The notes beneath the pieces are model-generated. The model was not told where the DNA came from and did no database searches. It saw only the letters and a program-made list of their open reading frames with translations. Shown here piece after piece: positions 1 to 38,020 of a stretch of DNA of 64,000 nt. The DNA comes from Elusimicrobium minutum Pei191 (GTDB taxonomy: Bacteria; Elusimicrobiota; Elusimicrobia; Elusimicrobiales; Elusimicrobiaceae). Position 1 is the first letter of the stretch. Each line of letters begins with the position of its first letter. A program made the position numbers and the translations under genes. The stretch spans positions 496,001 through 560,000 of the forward strand of contig NC_010644.1 in NCBI RefSeq assembly GCF_000020145.1, given 5' to 3'.

Positions 1-1
1 G

Positions 2-277
2 GAAAAGTTGAAATTTCCTGATTATTTTGGATATAACTGGGATGCATTAGACGAATGTTTAAAGGATTTAGATTGGTTAAATGCAACGGATATAATCATA
101 CATCATGAAAAGAATATAATCATAAATGAGATTGATTTTAAGATATATATAGAGATTTTAGCGGATGCGGTTTTATATTGGAACAATGACGGTGCATGTA
201 CGTTGATTGTTGGATTCCCAATAGAATACAAAGAAAAAATAGAAAAATATTTGCATAAAGAACCCGGGAAAATATAG
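2..277 (+). CDS. Barstar-family immunity protein, 5' end cut by window edge
   Basis: The frame is open to the left edge and ends at 277, so only the C-terminal ~91 residues are visible. The segment FPDYFGYNWDALDECL is the hallmark of the barstar fold (PF01337), in which an acidic helix plugs the active site of a barnase-type ribonuclease. The acidic residues D and E around WDALDECLKDLDWL fit that inhibitory helix. Barstar is usually about 90-110 residues, so perhaps 10-30 residues are missing. In polymorphic-toxin loci such a gene directly follows the toxin it neutralises, so a barnase-like toxin tip should lie just left of the window. The TTG at position 8 is an in-frame candidate start but would remove the first strand, so I think the true start is outside. 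Family assignment is strong; the toxin partner is inferred. Confidence 0.8.
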   Translation, partial: EKLKFPDYFGYNWDALDECLKDLDWLNATDIIIHHEKNIIINEIDFKIYIEILADAVLYWNNDGACTLIVGFPIEYKEKIEKYLHKEPGKI

Positions 278-362
278 TGCGCAAGAAGTAGCGCAAGCAG
301 AAGCCATAAGAGATAGTTATTATAAAACCTATGGTGTATCAGGCAAAGATTATAAAGCGGTT

Positions 363-1322
363 GTGTATGCCAAGTCAGAAGGAGAAACGTATATTATAAA
401 AGATGCGGGCGGCAATGAGGTAGAAGTATACCGACAAGGCGGCTACATAAAAGAAGCAGGCATAGGCGGAACTAACCTGATAGGAGCGGATGGCAATATA
501 ATAGACGGTAAAACCATGAAATCTGTTGGAGTAGAGGAAGGCTTTCATGGTTTGGGATTTAGTGACCCGTATGCGGGGCTCATGGGTGAATATGCGGCAG
601 ACAGGAACGGATTATTTACAATATTTGGCAGTGGTTTTGGCAGCAGTGATATAAGTGCGAATGATTGGTTAAAGGGGGGAAGCAACAACTATAGTGATAA
701 AAGCTTTATGGGAGGGTTGTATAGCGGGCCTTTGGGATATACTGGCGGTGCAGTAAGCAATGCAGATTATTTAGCAAATACAAACGGATTGTATACAACA
801 TACGGGCCGCAGGATACAGAGAATTCTGCCATAGTATTAACTCCTGCGGGAATGCTGGGCACGGCAGTATTGATAGGGGGTATGCTATACTTTGCAAAGA
901 AAGCGTCAGATGATTTGGCAAAAGGAATACAGCAATCATCTGGAAGCGGGTCAAAAAAGGGGGAGGGGAAACAGGAACAGAGTTCACCAGCAACCCCGCC
1001 GCCGCCTAAAATGCCGGAAGAGCCTAAAGGAGATAAGAAAGAAAAGAAACAAGGTGAAAGTTCTGAATATAAAGATAGTACAAATAAGGATTCTATAGAA
1101 AACAGATTAACTAACAGAACTCATAAAGAAATAAGTGATACCTTGCAAGAAAATGGATATGAGAAAAGTTTTTCAAAAGATGGAAAAGTGGAAATTTACA
1201 AAAAATCAGGAGAAAATATAAGTTATACATTTAGGAATTTTTCTACATCAGGCAACAAAGAGCCTACTTTAGAAGTTTTAAAGAATGGTAAAATTTTTAA
1301 AAAAATAAGGTTAATACAATGA
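363..1322 (+). CDS. Displaced C-terminal cassette of a polymorphic toxin (orphan tip)
   Basis: About 319 residues from the GTG at 363, but the frame is open back to 243 and runs straight out of the barstar 3' end without a recognisable start or ribosome site. The first ~150 residues are Gly/Asn/Tyr-rich and resemble the conserved pre-toxin part of a secreted RHS/CDI-like protein. A hydrophobic segment lies near residues 160-185 (LTPAGMLGTAVLIGGMLYF), then a Lys/Glu/Pro linker (195-240), then a distinct C-terminal domain (about 245-319) containing SFSKDGKVEIYKKSGE and ending KIFKKIRLIQ. That last domain has the size and charge of a small RNase-type toxin tip, but I do not recognise the family. 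The stop overlaps the next start (ATGA), typical of a toxin-immunity pair. Likely a silent or recombinational cassette; function inferred from layout only. Confidence 0.6.
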   Translation: MYAKSEGETYIIKDAGGNEVEVYRQGGYIKEAGIGGTNLIGADGNIIDGKTMKSVGVEEGFHGLGFSDPYAGLMGEYAADRNGLFTIFGSGFGSSDISANDWLKGGSNNYSDKSFMGGLYSGPLGYTGGAVSNADYLANTNGLYTTYGPQDTENSAIVLTPAGMLGTAVLIGGMLYFAKKASDDLAKGIQQSSGSGSKKGEGKQEQSSPATPPPPKMPEEPKGDKKEKKQGESSEYKDSTNKDSIENRLTNRTHKEISDTLQENGYEKSFSKDGKVEIYKKSGENISYTFRNFSTSGNKEPTLEVLKNGKIFKKIRLIQ

Positions 1323-1879
1323 AAAATAAAATAGAAGATATATTCGAATGTAAAGAAGTTGACTATGGGGATTCTAAAGGTAAATGGATTGTTTTTAAAG
1401 AAGATTTCTTGCAAGCTAAGAAAGATTTTATAGTTTTCGTTTTATTTCAAAAACCTAAGATTTTTCAGAAAATACTTTTTTCTTTATGTAAAGATAAATC
1501 AATTAAATGGATTGAAAATTTTAATAAAAACTTAGCATTTTCAGAATCGCGCAAGTTGGAAATAAATAACGAAGCTGAATTTAGTAAATTTTACAATGAA
1601 TTTAGATTGAATTATTATGAATATAATTTATTTTATTCGGAGGATGAAGAATTATATATATTGATGGATGATGATGATAATTTTCATGTTTTGTGTCACA
1701 AGGACACACTAAGGAAAGTCTTTGATCTTGAATTCATATTTGCAAATGATGCTATGTTATATGAAACATTTAATACTTTTAAAGGATATCATCAAATAGT
1801 CTTAAATCTATATAGTAAATATTTCTTTAGCAAGAGGATAACAATAGATGATTTTAGAATAATAGATAAAAGAGAATAA
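1319..1879 (+). CDS. Candidate immunity protein of the displaced toxin cassette
   Basis: A 186-residue soluble protein without signal peptide or membrane segment. It is rich in Phe, Lys, Asp and Glu, with a notably acidic stretch around residues 108-122 (YSEDEELYILMDDDDNFHV). I do not recognise a family. The start ATG overlaps the stop of the preceding toxin-tip gene by four bases, implying translational coupling, which is the usual arrangement for a cognate immunity protein. The acidic patch would suit binding to the Lys-rich C-terminal domain encoded upstream. The DNA is more AT-rich than the housekeeping genes further right, as is common for horizontally moving immunity genes. Confidence 0.55.
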   Translation: MKNKIEDIFECKEVDYGDSKGKWIVFKEDFLQAKKDFIVFVLFQKPKIFQKILFSLCKDKSIKWIENFNKNLAFSESRKLEINNEAEFSKFYNEFRLNYYEYNLFYSEDEELYILMDDDDNFHVLCHKDTLRKVFDLEFIFANDAMLYETFNTFKGYHQIVLNLYSKYFFSKRITIDDFRIIDKRE

Positions 1880-1961
1880 AGATATATCAACTATGTAATA
1901 AAAGCGAAAGGGAGGATATCTATTTCCTATATTAATTGTTGGTAAGTGAGGTTCAGCCTTA

Positions 1962-2243
1962 ATGCCCGGTGCGGCAGTGGCGGTATGTGACAGTGTTAAA
2001 TTTAAAGATGTTAATGATAAATATCAACCCAAAACAGATATTCCAATAGTAAAAGAATATTGGGATAACCAAAAGAAAATAATACAAGAGTCAAATAAAA
2101 AATATTTGAAATATCTTCGTTTGAATCCAAAACTAAATTCTGAGGAAAAAAGATTGAAAATGTATGAAATAAAATGGGAAACAGAGCTGAAATATTTGCC
2201 GGAAGAATATAAATTGATGTGTTGTACTAAGTTATCAGAATAA
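1962..2243 (+). CDS. Small hypothetical protein at end of toxin cassette array
   Basis: 93 residues from ATG 1962, ending just before a strong terminator. The N-terminus is hydrophobic (MPGAAVAVCDSV) and the remainder is Lys/Tyr-rich and predicted helical. There is no Shine-Dalgarno sequence near the ATG. The frame upstream is open only to 1950. I do not recognise a family. The hydrophobic start joined to an unrelated charged body is compatible with a second cassette junction, that is a fragment of the toxin core fused to another tip or immunity sequence. It could equally be a non-functional remnant. Confidence 0.35.
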   Translation: MPGAAVAVCDSVKFKDVNDKYQPKTDIPIVKEYWDNQKKIIQESNKKYLKYLRLNPKLNSEEKRLKMYEIKWETELKYLPEEYKLMCCTKLSE

Positions 2244-28193: not shown

Positions 28194-29367
28194 AGATAAC
28201 AGAGTAAAAATTTTATATATAATTACGCGTTTGGACGCCGGCGGCGCCCAAAAAAGCGTGTTGTATTCCGCCGCCAATCTGTCTAAAAATAAATTTAAAG
28301 TTTTCTTAGCGGCAGGACCGGGCGGAGTGCTGGATCCTTTCGCAAAAAAACTTCTTAAAAATAAATATTTTTATATCAATAGCCTTAGGCAGCGCGTTTG
28401 CTTTTATAACCTTTTTTATGATTTGGTATCTTTATTTCAAACGGCCTGGCTTATAATAAAAATCAGGCCGCATATAATTCATACAAACTGTCCTAAGGCG
28501 GGTGTAGTAGGGCGAGCGGCGGCTTTTTTAACCGCTCCTAAAACAAAGGTTATACACACTTATCATGGCTTAGGTTTTAGCGTCTATGGCGGTATAAAAA
28601 GATATTTATTTTATTCTAAAATTGAAAAATATTTTTCTTTTATAACGGACCAGTTGGTTTTTGTATCAAATTCAAATATGCAAGAAGCGCTTACGCTTGG
28701 CATAGGCAACGTAAAAAAAAATATTCTTATTTATCCCGGAGCTGAGTTTGAAAAGTTAAAACCATCTTTTGATTATAATGCCAAACTTGAATCGCTGCGT
28801 ATTCCTAAAGGGGCAAAGGTCATATTAAGCATAGGTAATTTTAAACCTTTAAAAAACGCCCGCGATTTTGTGCTTGTGGCTAAACATGTTTTAAAAAAAA
28901 TTCCCGGAGCATATTTTCTTTACGCTGGCTGTGGAGGGATGGAAGAACGCAAAGTAAAAACGCTTGCTAAAAAATCAGGACTTAAAAATCATTTGTTTTT
29001 TTTAGGAATGCGGCATGATACCCGTGAATTGTTGGCTGTAAGCGATTTGTATGTTTCAACTTCTCTGCGTGAAGGCATGCCTGTTGCTTTGCTTGAAGCT
29101 TTGGGCGCGGGCGTGCCGGCTGTTTGTTATGAGGCTGACGGCACCGCCGAGGTTTTGATAAACGGCAAAAACGGTTTTATTTTAGGCCAGCGAAACAAAG
29201 AAGGAATGTCAGATAAAATAATTGAGATTTTAAAAAACGATAAAATTTATTTCACTATCAAACAAGGCGTAAAAAGTTTTGATAAAAATCTTTTTAGCGC
29301 GGTTTCCACCGTCAGAAAGCAAGAAGAATTGTATAATAAAATACTGCTTAAAAACCCGGGTTCTTAA
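28183..29367 (+). CDS. GT4-family glycosyltransferase
   Basis: 394 residues, GT-B fold. The N-terminal acceptor domain starts ILYIITRLDAGGAQKSVL (glycine-rich loop). The C-terminal donor domain has GNFKPLKNARDFV, LFFLGMRHDTRELLAVSDL and the catalytic EX7E-type segment SLREGMPVALLEALGAG (Glu residues eight apart), typical of GT4 (PF00534). It probably transfers a sugar from a nucleotide donor during envelope or surface polysaccharide synthesis at the inner membrane. The start lies inside the end of the SpoIID gene, so translation is coupled. The exact sugar cannot be inferred. Confidence 0.85.
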   Translation: MKNRDNRVKILYIITRLDAGGAQKSVLYSAANLSKNKFKVFLAAGPGGVLDPFAKKLLKNKYFYINSLRQRVCFYNLFYDLVSLFQTAWLIIKIRPHIIHTNCPKAGVVGRAAAFLTAPKTKVIHTYHGLGFSVYGGIKRYLFYSKIEKYFSFITDQLVFVSNSNMQEALTLGIGNVKKNILIYPGAEFEKLKPSFDYNAKLESLRIPKGAKVILSIGNFKPLKNARDFVLVAKHVLKKIPGAYFLYAGCGGMEERKVKTLAKKSGLKNHLFFLGMRHDTRELLAVSDLYVSTSLREGMPVALLEALGAGVPAVCYEADGTAEVLINGKNGFILGQRNKEGMSDKIIEILKNDKIYFTIKQGVKSFDKNLFSAVSTVRKQEELYNKILLKNPGS

Positions 29368-29397
29368 AAAAACAATATCAACTTTTTATAAAAATAG

Positions 29398-29403
29398 TAT
29401 AAT
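29398..29403 (+). promoter_or_regulatory. -10 box upstream of a short ORF
   Basis: TATAAT, preceded by no convincing -35 box; lies 42 bases before ATG 29446. Confidence 0.3.
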
Positions 29404-29445
29404 ATTTATGTAGCTAACTTTTTTAGTTTTTAATTTAAAAAAAGT

Positions 29446-29556
29446 ATGATAAAAAATATTAACCTAAATATTATTCGTATTGCGAAAGAAGTTCGTTCAA
29501 TTATGAGCGCGCTTTTTTATGTTATGTTTAAACGCAATGCGGAGGCGATAGGTTAA
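29446..29556 (+). CDS. Candidate 36-residue small protein
   Basis: ATG 29446 to TAA 29554-29556 encodes an Ile/Lys/Arg-rich 36-residue peptide that begins MIKNINLNIIRIAKEVR and has a short hydrophobic middle (SALFYVMF). It would be amphipathic or weakly membrane-active. A perfect TATAAT lies upstream and an intrinsic terminator follows 33 bp later, so the region looks like a small transcription unit. No Shine-Dalgarno sequence is visible. It may instead be a non-coding RNA. Confidence 0.3.
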   Translation: MIKNINLNIIRIAKEVRSIMSALFYVMFKRNAEAIG

Positions 29557-29589
29557 TAAAAACAATTTTTTGTTGTTATAAAAACTATA

Positions 29590-29617
29590 AACCTCCGATA
29601 AAAAATCGGAGGTTTTT
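29590..29617 (+). terminator. Intrinsic terminator
   Basis: AACCTCCGAT (29590-29599) pairs with ATCGGAGGTT (29604-29613), followed by TTTT; ends the small unit starting near 29400. Confidence 0.85.
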
Positions 29618-29687
29618 TATTTTAACGGGCTATTTTTTGGCGGCGGTTTAACTCTTAGTAGACGCTGCCTTGTAAAAAAGACCCATT

Positions 29688-29715
29688 TTAAGACCTACCG
29701 TACGGTAGGTCTTAA
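29688..29715. repeat. Perfect 28-bp palindrome upstream of the giant gene
   Basis: TTAAGACCTACCGT followed by its exact reverse complement, flanked by further AAGACC words. Similar GGTCTT/AAGACC inverted repeats lie at 57660-57695 and less clearly at 5201-5236 and 62679-62735. No T-run follows, so it is not a classical terminator; an operator or RNA element is possible. Confidence 0.6.
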
Positions 29716-29794
29716 GACCCTGGCGACGGAACTACGAAGATACTAAAATTTTATTAATGTATTTTACGAGTGAATTTTAGCGAAACGAGAAAGA

Positions 29795-32700
29795 ATGAAA
29801 ATAACAGAAACTGTAACCAAAATAATAAGCGCTGTCTTAATAGCAAGCATACTTCAAAGTGTTGTGCCCGCTGAGGTTTATGCGCAGGTACGTGTTGAAA
29901 AAAAAGCTACGAACATAAGCACAAAAAATCCAATAATAAATTCCAAGAACATAAAGAACTCCGGCTACATGATAAAGAGCGAAAAAGGATTAATAGGTCG
30001 AGAGATAAGTGAGGAGTTGGGGAAGGTATGGGGGAAGAGTTTTGCTGTGGAGAGTGTGAGGGTTGAGAGGGTATATGAAGAAGAGCGTGTAAAGATAGCG
30101 ATTGAGAGCGGGAGTCGTGAGAGGAGGGTATATGAGGTAATGGGAGAGGATTATTATAAAGCGTTGGAGTATTTTGCCGAGCAGGGGGGTGTTAGGTTGG
30201 GATATGGGAACGATGTAGAAGGAGAGAGTGTAGAGGAGGGAGGTTTATTAAACAGTGCGGACAGGGTATACAGTGCGTATAAGAGGACGTTGCAGAACAG
30301 TGATTCGAGGAAGGTAGGGAAGGGAGTGATAGAGTTAAGGTATGATTTGATAAGAAAGGATAGCAGGAAGAAGTTGGAGATGGATATAGATGAAGCTACT
30401 GGAGCGATGTTAAAGGTATTGGTGGACATATTGTTGTATTCGAAGAGGGGAATACAGGAAAGGTACGCGCCGTTGGTGACGGAGGTATTGGTAGGGATGA
30501 GGCGATTAGATTTAGGGGGAAAGACAGCGGGCAGTATGAGGGCATATTATAAAGAGGTATTGGATGTAAAGAAGAGTAAGGGAGTTTGTGAGAGCAGGAT
30601 TACGGACGGGTATGTGAGGGGTTTGGGGGAGGCGCAGAAGAGTTGTATAGATATAACGAGTGCGATGACGGGGCTTGGGTTGATAGGAGGAGGGGAGGAG
30701 GAGATATACAAATTTGGGAAGGAGTATTGGAGTGAGGGGCGGGTATCGTCTGTAATAATGAGCAGGGCGGCGCACGGGTTGATATTAAGCGGAGAAAAGG
30801 GGATTGTATTGTTAGGAGAATTGATAAGGGAAACGGTAAGGAGCGGGTATCCTAGGAACGCGGTGAAGTGGGCGTGGGACAAATTTGGGGCTGTATTTAC
30901 GCCGTCGGAGTATGTTGACGGGTATTATAATCATGTGAGTAAAAAGGCGTTGTATTTGAATGAAGTGACGAGGCGGTTTGAGTATATAGATGAGGAGAAG
31001 GCAAGGGAGTGGGGTTTTAGTGTTAGAGATATAAAGATGTGTCAGGAGGTAGAGGTAAAGAGGGGAAGTGATGCGTGTTTAATGATGCCAATGAGGAATG
31101 TATTTACGGATATAGGGGAGGATTTGGCGTATTTAGGGGGAGCTGGAGGAAAGCGTGAGATAAGGAAATTATTAAGAGAAGAGCGGAATTTGCATTGGCC
31201 GTTTATAGTTGGAGTATTGGGTAGTGGGGCGTATGAAGGGGATGGAGGGGCTAACGAGATAAGGAAGGTGATAGCGGGTACGACGTATATGGATGTGACG
31301 TCTGGAACGGACAGGAAGATAAAGGAAGCGGTGGGATTGAAGATAGGAGGGTTTAACGCTGACCAGTTAAAGAGGGCGAGGGAGTATTATAATGAGAAGA
31401 GATTAGCGTATGTATTAGATATAGTTGTGATGATAGCGTTGATAGGAAACCTGGCGAAGAGTATGAGCACGTTTAGGGTACCTAGGAGCGTAGAGAACTG
31501 TTGGAGGAGTTTGAGGGGGGCAGGGAATGCTGGGAAGGAAGTTTCGGTAAGAGGGGTAAGGAGTGTAAAGGTAGCGGAGCAGGCGGCGGCGATGGAGCGT
31601 GTAAATGCGGTAAAGAAGGTTAGCGGTGGGGTAAAGGGGGGAGTGATAGAATTTGGTTTAGAGGGTGTGGGAGGAGAGTTAAAGGTAGTGAAGGGTCGGA
31701 TAGGAGGGAAGTTAAAGATAAGTCCGGTGTTAGAGGGAACGTTGAAGGTAGAGACGAAGGTAAAGGATTTGGGCTTAAGCGTAGGCGGGTCTGGAGGGGG
31801 AGGCACGTTTAGCGCGAGGCCTGTTGTGGGGAAAGGAATAATAGAGGGAGGGAAGGGAATAAGTTTGGAGAGTAAAGTTACCGGTGCGTTTAGAGTTATG
31901 GAGGGGAATAAAGTAGCGGGTGGAGTGGTGGAGGGTGAAAAGGTTATTGTTGCTGCGAGAGGAACGGGAAGTGGGGTTGGCAGGATTGGCAGAGTGATGG
32001 GTAGGGCGAAGAATAGTTTTGTACATGCGAAGAACAAGGCTGTGGTATACAGTATGATGGTAATGTTGCCAATGGGGAGCATGACGGAGGCTGGAAGCGC
32101 GGTAAAGAATATAAGTAATGTAGGGAAGCAGATAAGCGTGATGGCGGAAGCAGGGGGGGTAGGAGTAAGGACGATAGAGGGTGGAAAGTTAATAAGGGGA
32201 GTAATCGCGGCTGGCGAGGTAAGCAAAGCAATGAGGAGCGCGGAGGTTGTATCGGGAGTAAGTAAGGGATTGGATAGAGCGGGGAGAATAGGTAAGGCGT
32301 CGAAGTTGGGAGGGATTGGAGCAAAGCGAGTAGGTGATACGGCAAAGTTATTTGGGATAGGAAGTATAATAGGAAGGCCGGCAGAGGCGGAGGGAGGCAG
32401 CGGGCCGTCGTCTGGAACATTGGAGCGGGTATACGCGCAGTTGGTGGGGGTAAGAGCGCCAGTAAGTAAAGAGGTAAGCACGAAGGAGTTTATCAAGCAA
32501 GAGTTGATAAACATGAGCGGGATAGGTTTTGTAGCGATGCTTGCGGAAGAGTTAAAGATAGGAAGGGAGATAAGAAGGGAGTATGGGAAAGAAGGGATAA
32601 CGGCGGAGAGCATGAAGAAGCAGTGGGCTGCTGTGGAGATGACGAGGGCAGAGGCGGTGTTGGATAGAGCGGTGGAAGAAGGGAGAGAGCTGACGGATTT

Positions 32701-35700
32701 AGAGAACAGCGCGGTAGCCGGGTATATAAGTAATATACATGTAAACAACCAGGGTTATGTAGAAGGCGAAAAAGGGGAATGGAGTTTGTCAAATACGCCG
32801 ATAGCGAAGGCTGCGGATGATTATATAAAAAATAAATATGGGTATGAATATAAGCAAGACGTTGAGAGCTATAAGAGGGTAAACGGGGAAGGAAAAGAAG
32901 AGACGGTAAGCAGGATAATAAACAAAAGAGTAGAAAAAATAACCCCCGCGCAAGAAGCCTTAGAAGGAACAGCGGCGCATCATGTAACCGGGCAGGTATA
33001 CTCCTCAGCAAGACCTGTGGTAACAGGAGTCTTAGAACATACCTTAGGATCAGCAAGCGAGGCAGCGGTAAACGCTAAAGCAAGCGCGGCGGAATTTGGG
33101 ATGCAGGTAAGGCCTATAGTGAAAAACCAGTCTGTTAGTACGATAGCTGCCAGCTTTTTTGGGGTATTGCCCGAGAAATTAAAAGCCGTATTAACCAACA
33201 CTTTAACATCTGATGAAGCCGAATCATTACAGAACGCGTTAGACTCCGCTTACAATAAAGCCATTTTGGAATTTATTGTAAAACATGGGGACAGCGCCGC
33301 CGCGAAAGTCGGTGATAAAACGGTAAGAACTTACCCCGCGTTTCAAATTATATTAGAAAATAATATAAATAACGCTTTTAAAACAGTTAATATAAACAGG
33401 ACTTCGCTTGAGGCTATAAGGGCGGAGCTTGGGTCTGTTATATTTATAAACGATGCTGAGTTAGCGGCATTAGATAAAGCAGACGTTTTTGACTCTGAAC
33501 AAAGAAAAATAAACACGCAAGCCGCGCAAAAAGCTTTTGAGCAAAAACAGGCGGATGGCAGCGTTGTAAATATTACGGAAGACGGTTTTGAAATATTAAA
33601 TCCTGCCACAGATAAAGTGGAATATACAAAAGGGTTTTTAGGAATCGGCAAAAAGCCTAAGATTTCTGTTAACAGTTCAACTAAAGATAATCAACCTTTA
33701 AGCATAGAAAATAAAATAGAACAAAAATACCAGGTAAACGCGGCTATAGAAAAACCTGACGGCAGTATTAAAATTTCGGAGCTGCATAGTATTAAGATAA
33801 AAGTTATCGCGTCGGTAAAAGATATTATTAAATTTAAGCAGCATATTTACGGAAATTATGTTCCTTTTATTAATAATGAAGGTAACCTGATTTTTTTAAA
33901 TACCAAAACAGGTAAAAAAGACAGTTCTATTTCTGTTCACGCTACAAACGGAGTTTCTTTTCAATCCATTGCCGAGAAAATAGAAAACGGCGTGGCGTCA
34001 ACCTCTTTACCTGTGGTGGAAACTTCCATGAGGCATTCCAACTCCTGGACGCTGGCTCTTTATTTAACCTCTATAATTAATGGTTTTATAATTTTGTTCA
34101 GCGGTTCAAACGTTATACAGTTTGCCGATAAAATGGATTTATCTAATACGCAGCAGGCTCTTTTTAGCAGCGTTACGTTTATACTTGCCATACCGGTGCC
34201 TTATTTAGCTACAATCGCTAAAGCAAAATTAGGCAAAGCAAAAACATTAAAATTAGGCGTTTCGGCCGTCTTACTTGGCGGCGTTATGAGCGCGGCTTTC
34301 GGGCTTGGGCATTTTAGCGTTTGGGAAAATGTGGGTTTGCAATACGCGGGGCTTCTTGCTTCGGCTTTCATTACAGGTATAGGAGTGTTTACAACAACGG
34401 TAACTACTTCGCCGATAATGTCTAACATAACAGGCGATCCTGATTTGAGAATGAAAAAAACAGCCAGACTGCAAATGCTTATGTCTTTAGGGGTTATGTT
34501 GGCTACTACATCCGCATGGATGCTTAGCAAAGCGGGCATTGACCCTACTTCGGCTATACCGTTGCTTGCTATCGGTATGTCAGGCGCTACTCTTGCGGCT
34601 TTACATAAGACAAATATTCCCAACTTTAAATATAATGGTTTTACTAAAAACGCCGAAGAAACGGTTGTTAAAGAAAAAGTATCTTTCTCGGAAAAGAAGA
34701 TTAAAGCCGCCACCGCTTTTAAAAATTTTGTAAACGCTCATAAAACAGCTTTAGGTAATTTTACGCATGGTAATTTTAAACAAGGCGCAGACTCTTTAAA
34801 ATACGGTTGGAATATTATCTTTAACGATGGTGAAGCGTGGAAGCTTATTCCCAGTGCGTTTTTATTAAACGGCGCGGAAGTTGGATTTATGGTAAGTATG
34901 CCTATTATGATTTTAGCTATAATGCCCGGCGCTAATGAACTTGTAAGCGGACTTGCGTTTTTATATTCCTCTGCTCCTTTTATATTGGGAAGACTTACTG
35001 CCAAAACCTTAATTAATAAATTTGGCATGTTTGGCAGTAAAATGCTTGCCACAGGCTTAACTGTTGTTGGCGTTACGTCCGCAATAGGAATGGGAATGAG
35101 CGCCGGCGTAGTGCCGCTTGTCGCGGCTATAGGTGTTGGGGAATACGGCATATCAAGCTTTTTTGCTTTATTTAATATAGGCCTTGCCGCTACCCCTAAA
35201 AGAGAGGCTAAACTTGTTCATTGGATATCAATTTCAACTTTAGGCTGCGCTATTTTCCCGGCTATGTTTGCCGCTATGGCTGACACCGCTAAAATAAGGT
35301 ATATGGCACAAGGGTTAAGCGAACAACTTGCCAATGTTGAAGCTACCACAACCTTTTATCTTATGGCTCCTTTAGCGTTAATAGGCGTGTCGTTTGCTCT
35401 TATGGCGGCCCAAAAAGGCGCGGCAAAAGAATTGATAAACGGTTTTGTGAAAATAGCCAAAAATTTACATGCAGCCCTTTTTGCCACTACGCCCAAAGCA
35501 TTTGCCAGTGAGAAAGAAAGAACGCAACATGAATCATCAAGAGTAAAATTTTTCTCAAAAAATAAAAAAGACGATACAAGCAAAGGTTCCGGTACTCTTA
35601 ATTTCGGCGTTAACCCCACGGAACTTGCTAAAGGAATTAAAAAAATATTTACGGTTAATTCCCAGGTTGTGGAAGGAAACGGAAAAGTTATAATACAAGA

Positions 35701-38020
35701 AAGAAATTTTACACTTGACCTGCCTATACAAGAGGGGGAAGAATTCAGCTATAAAAATTACCAGGAAAGGGTTGCCGTACCTTTTACAATATCACACGCT
35801 AATGAAAGCGATGTTATTAATTTTTATAAATTTCTCATGAATCATAAAGCGTATGTAACTAAAGACGGTGAAATAGCTTATGAAAACAGAGTTTCAAAAA
35901 CACTTAAATCCCATTATGTATTAAATAGCGGAAAACCTTTAAACATAATGCAAAAAATACAAGATATTAAAGAAGGCAAAAATATTACTCCTATAAATAT
36001 TGATAAAATAAATCCTTCTTCCCAATTCTTAAGTCCTTTATATTTAACATCCGCGCTTATGGCTATGGAGTTTGCGGTTTCGCCTTTGATTACCAACATA
36101 CAGGAAACCTTAGGATACAGCGATGGTAAAATAACTGTTTTAGTAGCCACTACAACGTTGGCCGCTATTTTCTTGCCCTTCTTTTCTTCTCCGTTCGCGG
36201 GTAAATTTGGCAGGAAGACAGCTCTTAACGTGGGGCTTTCCGGTATTTTGATAGGGTCTTTAGCGTCATACCTTTTTGGTTTTGGGAATATAGCTACGCC
36301 TTCGGTATTCGGCCCCGCTTTACAGTTTGCGGGCATTCTTCTTTCAATTTTTGCTATAGGCGTTGGTAAGGATTTTATTAATAATTCGGCCGCGCCCATG
36401 ATGTCTTCCATTACCACGGAAGAAAGAGTAAGGACAAGAAAAAGTATTAATATACAGAAAAGCATGGGGGTAGGTATTACCGTAATGTACGCGGCTCCTA
36501 TACTTTTTGCACAATATTTTGGCGACGCGACAGGCTCAATACCTTTTATAGGAGTGCCGGCGGCTTTGGCTGGATTAATTTGGCTTAACCTTTCCGGTAT
36601 ACCTAACACGAAAAGTCAGCTTGATACGGAGAAAAAAGTTTCTTTAAAGCAGGAACTTGCGGCAAAATGGAATTATTTTAAAAACGATATCGCTTCAAGA
36701 AAAATAGTAGGCGGGCTTACTCTTTTAAACATGGTTGAGGCAGGCTCGGCTATAGTAGGTCCTCTTATATTCGGCCGATTGTATTCCGAAACTACCGCTC
36801 AAATGTTTGCTGTGCTTACATATCCGTTGCCATTTTTAGCGGGCAGATTTTTGGCCGACAAAATAATAAACCGCTTTGGCGTTGCCGGGGCAACCGGTTT
36901 TGGTTTGGTATCCATTACGGCGGGAAGCGTAGCCAGCATTGCCGTAACCCACGCGGCGCCTTTACTGCTTGTAGCCAGTTTTGCGGTAGTTGAATTTGGT
37001 ATATCTTTGGTTTTTACCGTAACTTACGGCGCTTTATCAAAAAACAGAGAACGGGAAATAATGACGCTGCCTTTTGTAATAGTTTCCGTGGCGGGTTTTA
37101 GCGTAGGCTCTATTTTATGGGGCGGCGTTTCAGACTTTACAAAATACGCGGCGGAAAGTATTTTCGCTTTATCCCCGACGGATGCTTTAAATTTAGGTTC
37201 TTTTGTTGGATTTATACTTTTGCCGCCGGTATTAATGTTACCTGTTTTTAAACTTTTTAACCGAAAAGGGATGTTTAAGAAAAATGAGAAATCCGTCCCT
37301 ATACAAGCCGCGGCATCTTTGCCCGAGGTAGAACAAAAAGCGGCACCATCGCTTTCCTTTTTTGGCAAAATTTTTGCCGCAATAAAGAAATTCTTTTCAC
37401 CTAAAGACATTATTGATAACAGTTCTTTTTCAATAGGTTTAACAAACAACAAAAAAGAACTTTTAGAAGAACTTAAAAGCTTTTACAATGTTAAGGAAGA
37501 GGAAGATGTTTGGCAAAATATAAATAATGATTTCTTTATCCAGTTTCCCCAATATAATTCGGACAAATATATTTTTAGAGGGCTATTTTTTGAAGACAAA
37601 AAATATTTTTCCGAAATTAAGGAAAATGGTATGGATATCAATTATGTGCGCCCTAAAACATACCCTGTTTCTGTAGATATGATGCATATGCATCGAGGAG
37701 AAGAAACTTCCGGCATGTGTTTCGGTGAAGAACCTTCCGGCGCGGCGTCTTACGCTTTTGGCGCTAATATGTGGAAACGCGGCGGCAAGGGGTATGTGGC
37801 GATGATAGTTGTTAAAAAACCCCAAGATATAGTAAATTCCGGCGGAACGCTGCTTTCAAGAAGAAGTATCGGAGCCGAGGAAATTGAAGAAGTTTTAATT
37901 TTTGATATTAAAAATAAAAAATGGGTTCCAGTCGAATCGTTAACCGAAATCGGAGAGCCGCTTTCTTTTGCGCGCCAAGAAAATATTTTCGGTTTTGCTT
38001 TAGAATATTTGACAGTTTAA
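29795..38020 (+). CDS. Giant exported protein with duplicated soluble-MFS units
   Basis: 2741 residues. A signal peptide (IISAVLIASILQSVVPAEVYAQ) is followed by a helical region (about 70-540), a hydrophobic segment (LAYVLDIVVMIALIGNLAKS, about 535-555) and a Gly/Val/Lys-rich low-complexity region (580-880). A helical stretch to about 1055 and a soluble domain (1100-1400) come next. A 12-helix MFS transporter domain follows (about 1414-1885), then a second soluble domain (1920-2060) resembling the first, a second MFS domain (about 2074-2490, with FAGKFGRKTALNVG at the conserved loop) and a C-terminal globular domain (2545-2741). The C-terminal domain has Arg2595 in YIFRGLFFED and a late GAEEIEEVLIFD, which loosely recalls the R-S-E pattern of ADP-ribosyltransferases; I hold that weakly. 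Residues 68-1049 use strongly purine-biased codons unlike the rest. I know of no characterised homologue with this order. Confidence 0.75.
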   Translation: MKITETVTKIISAVLIASILQSVVPAEVYAQVRVEKKATNISTKNPIINSKNIKNSGYMIKSEKGLIGREISEELGKVWGKSFAVESVRVERVYEEERVKIAIESGSRERRVYEVMGEDYYKALEYFAEQGGVRLGYGNDVEGESVEEGGLLNSADRVYSAYKRTLQNSDSRKVGKGVIELRYDLIRKDSRKKLEMDIDEATGAMLKVLVDILLYSKRGIQERYAPLVTEVLVGMRRLDLGGKTAGSMRAYYKEVLDVKKSKGVCESRITDGYVRGLGEAQKSCIDITSAMTGLGLIGGGEEEIYKFGKEYWSEGRVSSVIMSRAAHGLILSGEKGIVLLGELIRETVRSGYPRNAVKWAWDKFGAVFTPSEYVDGYYNHVSKKALYLNEVTRRFEYIDEEKAREWGFSVRDIKMCQEVEVKRGSDACLMMPMRNVFTDIGEDLAYLGGAGGKREIRKLLREERNLHWPFIVGVLGSGAYEGDGGANEIRKVIAGTTYMDVTSGTDRKIKEAVGLKIGGFNADQLKRAREYYNEKRLAYVLDIVVMIALIGNLAKSMSTFRVPRSVENCWRSLRGAGNAGKEVSVRGVRSVKVAEQAAAMERVNAVKKVSGGVKGGVIEFGLEGVGGELKVVKGRIGGKLKISPVLEGTLKVETKVKDLGLSVGGSGGGGTFSARPVVGKGIIEGGKGISLESKVTGAFRVMEGNKVAGGVVEGEKVIVAARGTGSGVGRIGRVMGRAKNSFVHAKNKAVVYSMMVMLPMGSMTEAGSAVKNISNVGKQISVMAEAGGVGVRTIEGGKLIRGVIAAGEVSKAMRSAEVVSGVSKGLDRAGRIGKASKLGGIGAKRVGDTAKLFGIGSIIGRPAEAEGGSGPSSGTLERVYAQLVGVRAPVSKEVSTKEFIKQELINMSGIGFVAMLAEELKIGREIRREYGKEGITAESMKKQWAAVEMTRAEAVLDRAVEEGRELTDLENSAVAGYISNIHVNNQGYVEGEKGEWSLSNTPIAKAADDYIKNKYGYEYKQDVESYKRVNGEGKEETVSRIINKRVEKITPAQEALEGTAAHHVTGQVYSSARPVVTGVLEHTLGSASEAAVNAKASAAEFGMQVRPIVKNQSVSTIAASFFGVLPEKLKAVLTNTLTSDEAESLQNALDSAYNKAILEFIVKHGDSAAAKVGDKTVRTYPAFQIILENNINNAFKTVNINRTSLEAIRAELGSVIFINDAELAALDKADVFDSEQRKINTQAAQKAFEQKQADGSVVNITEDGFEILNPATDKVEYTKGFLGIGKKPKISVNSSTKDNQPLSIENKIEQKYQVNAAIEKPDGSIKISELHSIKIKVIASVKDIIKFKQHIYGNYVPFINNEGNLIFLNTKTGKKDSSISVHATNGVSFQSIAEKIENGVASTSLPVVETSMRHSNSWTLALYLTSIINGFIILFSGSNVIQFADKMDLSNTQQALFSSVTFILAIPVPYLATIAKAKLGKAKTLKLGVSAVLLGGVMSAAFGLGHFSVWENVGLQYAGLLASAFITGIGVFTTTVTTSPIMSNITGDPDLRMKKTARLQMLMSLGVMLATTSAWMLSKAGIDPTSAIPLLAIGMSGATLAALHKTNIPNFKYNGFTKNAEETVVKEKVSFSEKKIKAATAFKNFVNAHKTALGNFTHGNFKQGADSLKYGWNIIFNDGEAWKLIPSAFLLNGAEVGFMVSMPIMILAIMPGANELVSGLAFLYSSAPFILGRLTAKTLINKFGMFGSKMLATGLTVVGVTSAIGMGMSAGVVPLVAAIGVGEYGISSFFALFNIGLAATPKREAKLVHWISISTLGCAIFPAMFAAMADTAKIRYMAQGLSEQLANVEATTTFYLMAPLALIGVSFALMAAQKGAAKELINGFVKIAKNLHAALFATTPKAFASEKERTQHESSRVKFFSKNKKDDTSKGSGTLNFGVNPTELAKGIKKIFTVNSQVVEGNGKVIIQERNFTLDLPIQEGEEFSYKNYQERVAVPFTISHANESDVINFYKFLMNHKAYVTKDGEIAYENRVSKTLKSHYVLNSGKPLNIMQKIQDIKEGKNITPINIDKINPSSQFLSPLYLTSALMAMEFAVSPLITNIQETLGYSDGKITVLVATTTLAAIFLPFFSSPFAGKFGRKTALNVGLSGILIGSLASYLFGFGNIATPSVFGPALQFAGILLSIFAIGVGKDFINNSAAPMMSSITTEERVRTRKSINIQKSMGVGITVMYAAPILFAQYFGDATGSIPFIGVPAALAGLIWLNLSGIPNTKSQLDTEKKVSLKQELAAKWNYFKNDIASRKIVGGLTLLNMVEAGSAIVGPLIFGRLYSETTAQMFAVLTYPLPFLAGRFLADKIINRFGVAGATGFGLVSITAGSVASIAVTHAAPLLLVASFAVVEFGISLVFTVTYGALSKNREREIMTLPFVIVSVAGFSVGSILWGGVSDFTKYAAESIFALSPTDALNLGSFVGFILLPPVLMLPVFKLFNRKGMFKKNEKSVPIQAAASLPEVEQKAAPSLSFFGKIFAAIKKFFSPKDIIDNSSFSIGLTNNKKELLEELKSFYNVKEEEDVWQNINNDFFIQFPQYNSDKYIFRGLFFEDKKYFSEIKENGMDINYVRPKTYPVSVDMMHMHRGEETSGMCFGEEPSGAASYAFGANMWKRGGKGYVAMIVVKKPQDIVNSGGTLLSRRSIGAEEIEEVLIFDIKNKKWVPVESLTEIGEPLSFARQENIFGFALEYLTV
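29996..32940 (+). other. Purine-rich segment of atypical codon use inside the giant gene
   Basis: On the plus strand this stretch is dominated by G and A, with very few C residues. Arginine is written mostly AGG/AGA, glycine GGG/GGA, valine GTA/GTG and leucine TTG/TTA. Before 29996 and after about 32940 the gene returns to the usage of its neighbours. The reverse strand therefore lacks stops over long distances and shows long but false open frames. Confidence 0.75.

What the first reader, a model, noticed from the sequence alone, without database searches (positions are those of the whole stretch)
29996..32940. Purine-rich 2.9-kb segment with foreign codon use inside the giant gene
The coding strand switches abruptly to G/A-dominated sequence with AGG/AGA Arg, GGG/GGA Gly and very little C, then returns to normal near 32940 in the middle of the same frame. 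Explanations: recent acquisition of the 5' part from another genome, gene conversion, or selection on the RNA or DNA strand itself (for example R-loop or G-rich structure).
Basis: seen in the sequence. Interest (0 to 1): 0.7.

Follow-up and report, generated by a model that had tools for sequence, protein, structure and literature searches.

The report
Identical G-rich front module, giant genes
A 3-kilobase, guanine-rich stretch at the front of a giant gene in a gut bacterium is one of three letter-for-letter identical copies in three different giant genes, apparently kept identical by gene conversion, and its odd composition resembles that of the recombining vls cassettes of the Lyme disease spirochete.

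Summary
In detail: GC skew is 0.65-0.69 in 1-kb windows, against a mean of 0.08 and a maximum of 0.33 in 479 kb of the same genome. It is not a foreign insert in one gene. The block 29983-32976 (2994 bp) occurs three times in the genome at 100% identity, in frame, near the 5' end of three giant ORFs (2741, 2533 and 3968 aa). Their signal peptides and C-terminal parts differ. The best-fit composition tract (29969-32914) coincides with the identical block. It encodes a conserved N-terminal region, probably an alpha-solenoid, found in 50 of 90 genomes of the same family. Single-copy or diverged homologues mostly have ordinary composition. Multi-copy versions are skewed, and in nine other genomes pairs of contigs end one assembler k-mer into a shared sequence after the signal peptide. 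Orthologous genes in two congeners differ in skew (0.5-0.8 vs 0.2-0.35) through pyrimidine-to-purine changes, so the composition arises in place and is not a deamination scar. Best explanation: concerted evolution by gene conversion between paralogous 5' modules, with a recombination-associated coding-strand G bias like Borrelia vls. That the bias helps recombination (R-loop) is inferred. G-quadruplexes are not supported.

The parts
29795..38020 (+). Giant gene, 2741 aa: signal peptide, G-rich N-terminal module, variable region, Major Facilitator (MFS_1) domains in the C-terminal half
   Evidence: ORF; translation; Pfam MFS_1 E 8.5e-21, best stretch aa 2087-2440, three stretches
29795..29887 (+). 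Signal peptide (about 31 aa, MKITETVTKIISAVLIASILQSVVPAEVYAQ), gene-specific and not part of the identical block
   Evidence: Read from the sequence; alignment of the three copies; the same kind of leader in family members
29983..32976 (+). Core block, 2994 bp, 100% identical in three places of the genome (G000:C1 525983, 699579, 727983), all + strand and in frame
29927..33021 (+). Longer block, 3095 bp, 100% identical between copies 1 and 2 only (nested conversion borders)
29969..32914 (+). Maximum-likelihood extent of the G-rich/C-poor composition (3-lnL ranges 29945-30008 and 32902-32944)
30509..31657 (+). Most conserved part of the N-terminal domain (motifs YLN..RFEYIDEE, RNVFTDIG, DVTSGTDRK), shared with giant proteins of relatives; predicted alpha-solenoid in a homologue
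29680..29730 (+). Leader palindromes (AAGACCTACCGTACGGTAGGTCTT and GGTCTTAAGACC), the local version of a hairpin element upstream of most family members
   Evidence: Sequence; comparison of leaders

Best explanation
The tract is the 5' module of a small family of giant secreted or envelope proteins, kept identical among paralogues by gene conversion (concerted evolution). Shown: three letter-identical copies with nested sharp borders, unlike flanks, the same architecture in relatives, and a composition border that coincides with the identity border. Inferred: the strong G-over-C bias of the coding strand belongs to the recombining state, as in Borrelia vls cassettes. Either it promotes pairing or strand invasion (for example a transcription-dependent R-loop leaving the G-rich coding strand unpaired), or it is a by-product of repeated conversion. 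The module would serve as a shared N-terminal part whose sequence is spread between genes whose C-terminal parts differ.
For: Three copies, 0 differences in 2994 bp; copies 1 and 2 share 3095 bp with borders 56 and 45 bp further out. Just downstream, genes 1 and 2 are only 29% identical in protein. Composition tract 29969-32914 against identity block 29983-32976. Family-wide: 50 of 90 genomes of the family have the module, and none of the other family's genomes in the order. In nine genomes two contigs run off inside an identical tail of 77, 99, 127 or 141 nt, most of them assembler k-mer sizes, right at or just after the signal peptide, while the upstream 120 nt are 26-88% identical. G030: two different 5' contigs run into one tract contig, skew .3-.6. 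G002: two genes share 93-97.5% identical patches around a different, also skewed, middle. Internal, diverged homologues (G008, G018, G003, G010, three in G015, three in G118, G041:C9) have skew -.04 to .16 over 900 nt and G015/G118 paralogues are only 30-58% identical in protein. Sequence after the signal peptide has median skew .26 at repeat or contig-end loci and -.09 at internal loci (Mann-Whitney p 3e-7, pairs not independent). Orthologues in G001 and G002: third-position C>G 45:4, T>G 33:6, C>A 20:3 inside the tract, 31:24, 21:24 and 22:24 outside. The vls precedent: coding-strand GC skew about .52, absent from the non-recombining paralogue vlsH (PMC11499132).
Against: Recombination itself was not observed: one finished genome plus draft genomes. 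G001 has a strongly skewed tract but only one copy was found (draft, 66% complete). The copy number of the skewed tracts in G127, G034 and G104 is undetermined. G027 has a shared tail without skew (.02). No G4 enrichment and no shared Chi-like word. Low mRNA structure would explain the skew without recombination (mean MFE -31.9 per 200 nt against -51.1 for the same protein in host codons).
Confidence: 0.62

Rival explanations
1. Selection on the mRNA: the 5' part of a very long message is kept C-poor so that it stays unstructured or is translated evenly. The copies are identical only because of recent duplication.
For: The tract RNA folds much less (mean MFE -31.9 per 200 nt) than the same protein in host codons (-51.1) or the rest of the gene (-44.2). 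Skew lies at the 5' end in all skewed members.
Against: Ordinary 5' modules of equally giant genes in relatives (1334-2340 aa) show no skew. The composition ends where the identity block ends, not at a translational landmark. Weak folding is an automatic result of lacking C.
Confidence: 0.2
2. Mutational by-product: repeated conversion or constant transcription exposes one strand, and an asymmetric mutation or repair process replaces pyrimidines by purines; no function.
For: The bias affects all three codon positions and the amino-acid make-up. It is directional between orthologues.
Against: The spectrum is mainly transversions to G and A (C>G 45:4, T>G 33:6), not the C>T and A>G expected from deamination of exposed DNA (C>T 24:14). 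I know of no common mutator that does this.
Confidence: 0.25
3. Recent horizontal acquisition of a module from an organism with other codon usage, then spread to three genes.
For: Codon use differs sharply from host genes; perfect identity of copies.
Against: The same domain occupies the same position in relatives with ordinary composition. No match in phages or plasmids. Orthologous genes in congeners differ in skew at 52-67% protein identity. A non-homologous middle in G002:C50 is skewed too.
Confidence: 0.05
4. An intein, transposon or other self-moving in-frame element.
For: In-frame 998-codon block in three host genes.
Against: Homologues hold the region as the normal N-terminal domain rather than as an insertion. 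No Pfam hit for the tract and no PHROG hit for the tract or its antisense ORF. Borders are nested and differ between copies.
Confidence: 0.03

Closest known systems
vls antigenic variation cassettes of Lyme Borrelia (vlsE and silent cassettes)
   Same: Gene-converting segments with raised G+C and strong coding-strand GC skew (.52 there.64 here); related non-recombining sequences lack the skew (vlsH there, single-copy modules here) (PMC11499132)
   Different: No silent array and no single expression site were seen here; all three copies are in intact chromosomal giant genes; the copies are identical rather than diverse; unrelated protein, unrelated phylum
pilE G-quadruplex-driven antigenic variation of Neisseria (as summarised in PMC11499132)
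   Same: G-rich element tied to gene conversion
   Different: There a short G4 near the gene; here a 3-kb bias without canonical G4 (0 against 1.7 expected)
Immunoglobulin switch regions (from own knowledge, not tested)
   Same: Kilobase-long G-rich non-template strand linked to R-loops and recombination
   Different: Non-coding, eukaryotic, deletional and deaminase-driven; here coding and copy-preserving
Giant proteins of Elusimicrobiota (PMC11573180)
   Same: The phylum is already known to be rich in huge proteins
   Different: That paper, as far as searched here, describes no shared 5' module, identical copies or composition switch

Membership tests
vls-type gene-conversion system | Strong GC skew of the coding strand in the recombining segment | tested here: met
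   Skew .64, host |skew| .08; vls average .52
vls-type gene-conversion system | Raised G+C in the segment compared with the genome | tested here: met
   48% in the tract against 39.6% in the rest of the gene; about 49% against 28.6% in Borrelia
vls-type gene-conversion system | Non-recombining relatives lack the skew | tested here: met
   Diverged single-copy homologues have skew -.06 to .25 over 900 nt; exceptions of unknown copy status: G001, G034, G127, G104
vls-type gene-conversion system | One expression site and a contiguous array of silent cassettes | tested here: not met
   Only three copies in the genome, each in a full-length ORF
vls-type gene-conversion system | Sequence diversity among cassettes (about 90% identity) | tested here: not met
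   100% identity among the three copies; G002 carries different cassettes between shared ends
vls-type gene-conversion system | Observed segmental recombination at the locus | not testable with these tools
   No population or passage data
G-quadruplex-driven gene conversion (pilE type) | G4-forming motif at or near the converted gene | tested here: not met
   0 canonical motifs in the tract, expected 1.7; runs of 5 or more G 10 against 16.6 expected in synonymous shuffles. The wider upstream region was not scanned
Intein | Hint splicing domain in the insert | tested here: not met
   No Pfam family hit in the 997-aa translation at E 0.01
HEAT/ARM-type alpha-solenoid domain | Superhelix of helical hairpins | tested here: inconclusive
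   Model of homologue L110 (pLDDT 62, pTM .63) is helical; best rows are HEAT/ARM proteins at Z 8-9.7, below the level that is telling for helical repeats
Recently acquired foreign gene segment | Closest relatives outside the host lineage | tested here: not met
   All relatives found are in the host's family; no match in phages or plasmids

The most novel reading that the evidence does not exclude
Elusimicrobiaceae run a chromosomal, vls-like cassette system that keeps, spreads and swaps the 5' modules of giant surface or secreted proteins, and recombining modules independently acquire extreme coding-strand G bias. This would be a second, unrelated bacterial case showing that transcription-oriented GC skew is a general mark of gene-conversion cassettes.
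Probability: 0.4. Interest if true: 0.8.

Novelty: new variant of a known kind. Interest (0 to 1): 0.66.

Why it matters
Why vls cassettes are GC-skewed is unsettled because the comparison rests on one lineage. Here a different phylum offers many species with recombining (skewed) and non-recombining (unskewed) versions of the same protein domain, so cause and effect of GC skew in gene conversion can be tested by comparison and by recoding. It also shows that the giant genes of gut elusimicrobia exchange 5' modules, and it explains why their draft genomes break just after the signal peptide of these genes.

Tried and rejected
C-free 66-mer scan for other tracts: only the three copies, plus stretches that read as AT-rich. 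G4 motifs: not enriched. Shared over-represented words (Chi-like): none stands out. Deamination as the source: spectrum does not fit. Mobile origin: no phage, plasmid or PHROG match. Intein: no Pfam hit. Rfam on 29300-33100: one sub-threshold Phe_leader match at 29557-29621 (28.8 bits, gathering score 55), treated as chance. The antisense ORF 31387-32748 (453 aa) repeats in all copies because they are identical and has no PHROG match; regarded as a by-product of the composition. Structure of the tract protein itself: unusable (pLDDT 43); a homologue gave a moderate helical model without a telling fold match. The E. minutum genome paper is not held, so whether its authors noted the repeat could not be checked. 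Literature searches found no description of it.

Full report
Setting. The window is bases 496001-560000 of a single-contig genome of 1,643,562 bp. That size matches, from memory, Elusimicrobium minutum Pei191, and the named relatives found are Elusimicrobium or Elusimicrobiales MAGs. The tract lies in one ORF, 29795-38020, 2741 aa: a signal peptide, the tract, and a C-terminal half with Major Facilitator domains.

Observation. The composition switch is real and sharp. The tract has C .086 and G .395; the rest of the gene has .184 and .212. Codon choice changes for nearly every amino acid. A two-change-point fit gives 29969-32914 with a gain of 243 lnL. In 479 kb of the genome no other 1-kb window exceeds a skew of .33. 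About half of the skew is already in the amino-acid composition: the same protein written in host codons would have skew .30.

What it is. The genome holds the tract three times. The core block, 29983-32976, is identical in all three copies (2994 bp, no difference). Copies 1 and 2 share 3095 bp (29927-33021). All copies lie on the + strand, in frame, just after different signal peptides, in ORFs of 2741, 2533 and 3968 aa. Downstream, genes 1 and 2 are only 29% identical in protein and gene 3 has no match, so the identity is recent and local. The composition tract starts within the error of the identity block, and its fitted end lies 62 bp before the end of the block.

Relatives. The encoded region is a conserved N-terminal domain, seen in 50 of 90 genomes of the family and in no genome of the other family in the order. 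It usually follows a signal peptide at the start of ORFs of about 1000-5600 aa. Most full-length homologues are compositionally ordinary. Skewed ones occur in three genera: the window genome (g1, three copies), G002 and G001 (g1), G030 and G034 (g2), G127 and G104 (g6). A better fold model, from a homologue, is an all-helical arrangement resembling HEAT/ARM solenoids without a decisive match.

Multi-copy status. In many draft genomes contigs end just after the signal peptide. In nine genomes two such ends share exactly 77, 99, 127 or 141 identical bases, mostly typical assembler k-mers, while the sequence before is unlike (26-88% identical). This is what a sequence repeated in two or more genes does to a short-read assembly. 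In G030 two 5' contigs run into the same skewed contig. In G002 two genes share a 107-nt patch (93%) and a terminal 201-nt patch (97.5%) around unrelated middles, both of them skewed, which looks like cassette exchange. Skew just after the signal peptide is higher at these loci (median .26) than at internal loci (median -.09), p 3e-7, with the caveat that paired ends are not independent.

Source of the bias. Two orthologous genes in the congeners G001 and G002 (53% protein identity) have skews of about .5-.8 and .2-.35 in the tract and alike values further downstream. The third-position differences run from pyrimidine in G002 to purine in G001 (C>G 45:4, T>G 33:6, C>A 20:3), while C>T is near balance (24:14), and outside the tract all are balanced. 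At four-fold sites with conserved amino acids C>G is 23:2 inside and 14:17 outside (Fisher p 2e-4). The direction of change is inferred from the host average, since no outgroup was used. This speaks against foreign origin and against cytosine deamination. It leaves selection for purines/G on the coding strand, or an unknown asymmetric process.

Mechanism. Shown: recent homogenisation among paralogues and its family-wide architecture. Inferred: RecA-type gene conversion. Speculative: that G bias helps, for instance by R-loops during transcription. Canonical G4 motifs are absent and long G-runs are rarer than in synonymous shuffles, so a quadruplex model is not favoured. Low RNA structure is a real property, but unskewed homologues at the same place in equally giant genes argue against it as the driver.

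Comparison. The nearest known case is the Borrelia vls locus, where converting cassettes have raised G+C and coding-strand GC skew and the static paralogue vlsH does not (PMC11499132). The present system shares these marks but has no silent array or single expression site and shows uniformity instead of diversity. It is therefore not a member of that system; it may work in part like it.

Limits. The evidence rests on one finished genome and on drafts. Conversion was not observed directly. G001 is an exception (skewed, one copy found in a 66% complete draft), and G027 has a shared tail without skew. The original genome paper could not be read.

Noticed in passing
window 29680-29730 and the leaders of relatives: A hairpin element, AGGNCNTTTGGNCC, often as an inverted pair GGGCCAAAAGTCC..GGACTTTTGGCCC with a T-run, lies about 40-120 nt upstream of nearly all family members. 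It has 6-19 exact copies per genome against 0-1 for the reversed control. It may be an attenuator or an operator of a regulon.
   Followed up: partly
window 1-2000: The second-highest GC skew of the sampled genome (.31-.33), over ORFs 363-1322 and 1319-1879. ORF 363-1322 has no Pfam match above cut-off.
   Followed up: no
window 31387-32748 (-): Long antisense ORF (453 aa) inside the tract, repeated in all copies; probably a by-product of the composition.
   Followed up: partly
L025/L026 (G030:C16): Giant ORF of at least 5570 aa whose translation shows repeated units that look like receiver, kinase-like and possibly ADP-ribosyltransferase-like domains; not confirmed with domain libraries.
   Followed up: no
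L006 (3968-aa gene) and L027, L112: Trypsin_2 domains near the C-terminus of giant genes with this N-terminal module, so C-terminal parts vary among members (MFS, protease, unknown).
   Followed up: partly
G000:C1 699579 and 727983: Two copies lie in direct orientation 28 kb apart; crossing-over between them would delete or duplicate the 28 kb between.
   Followed up: no
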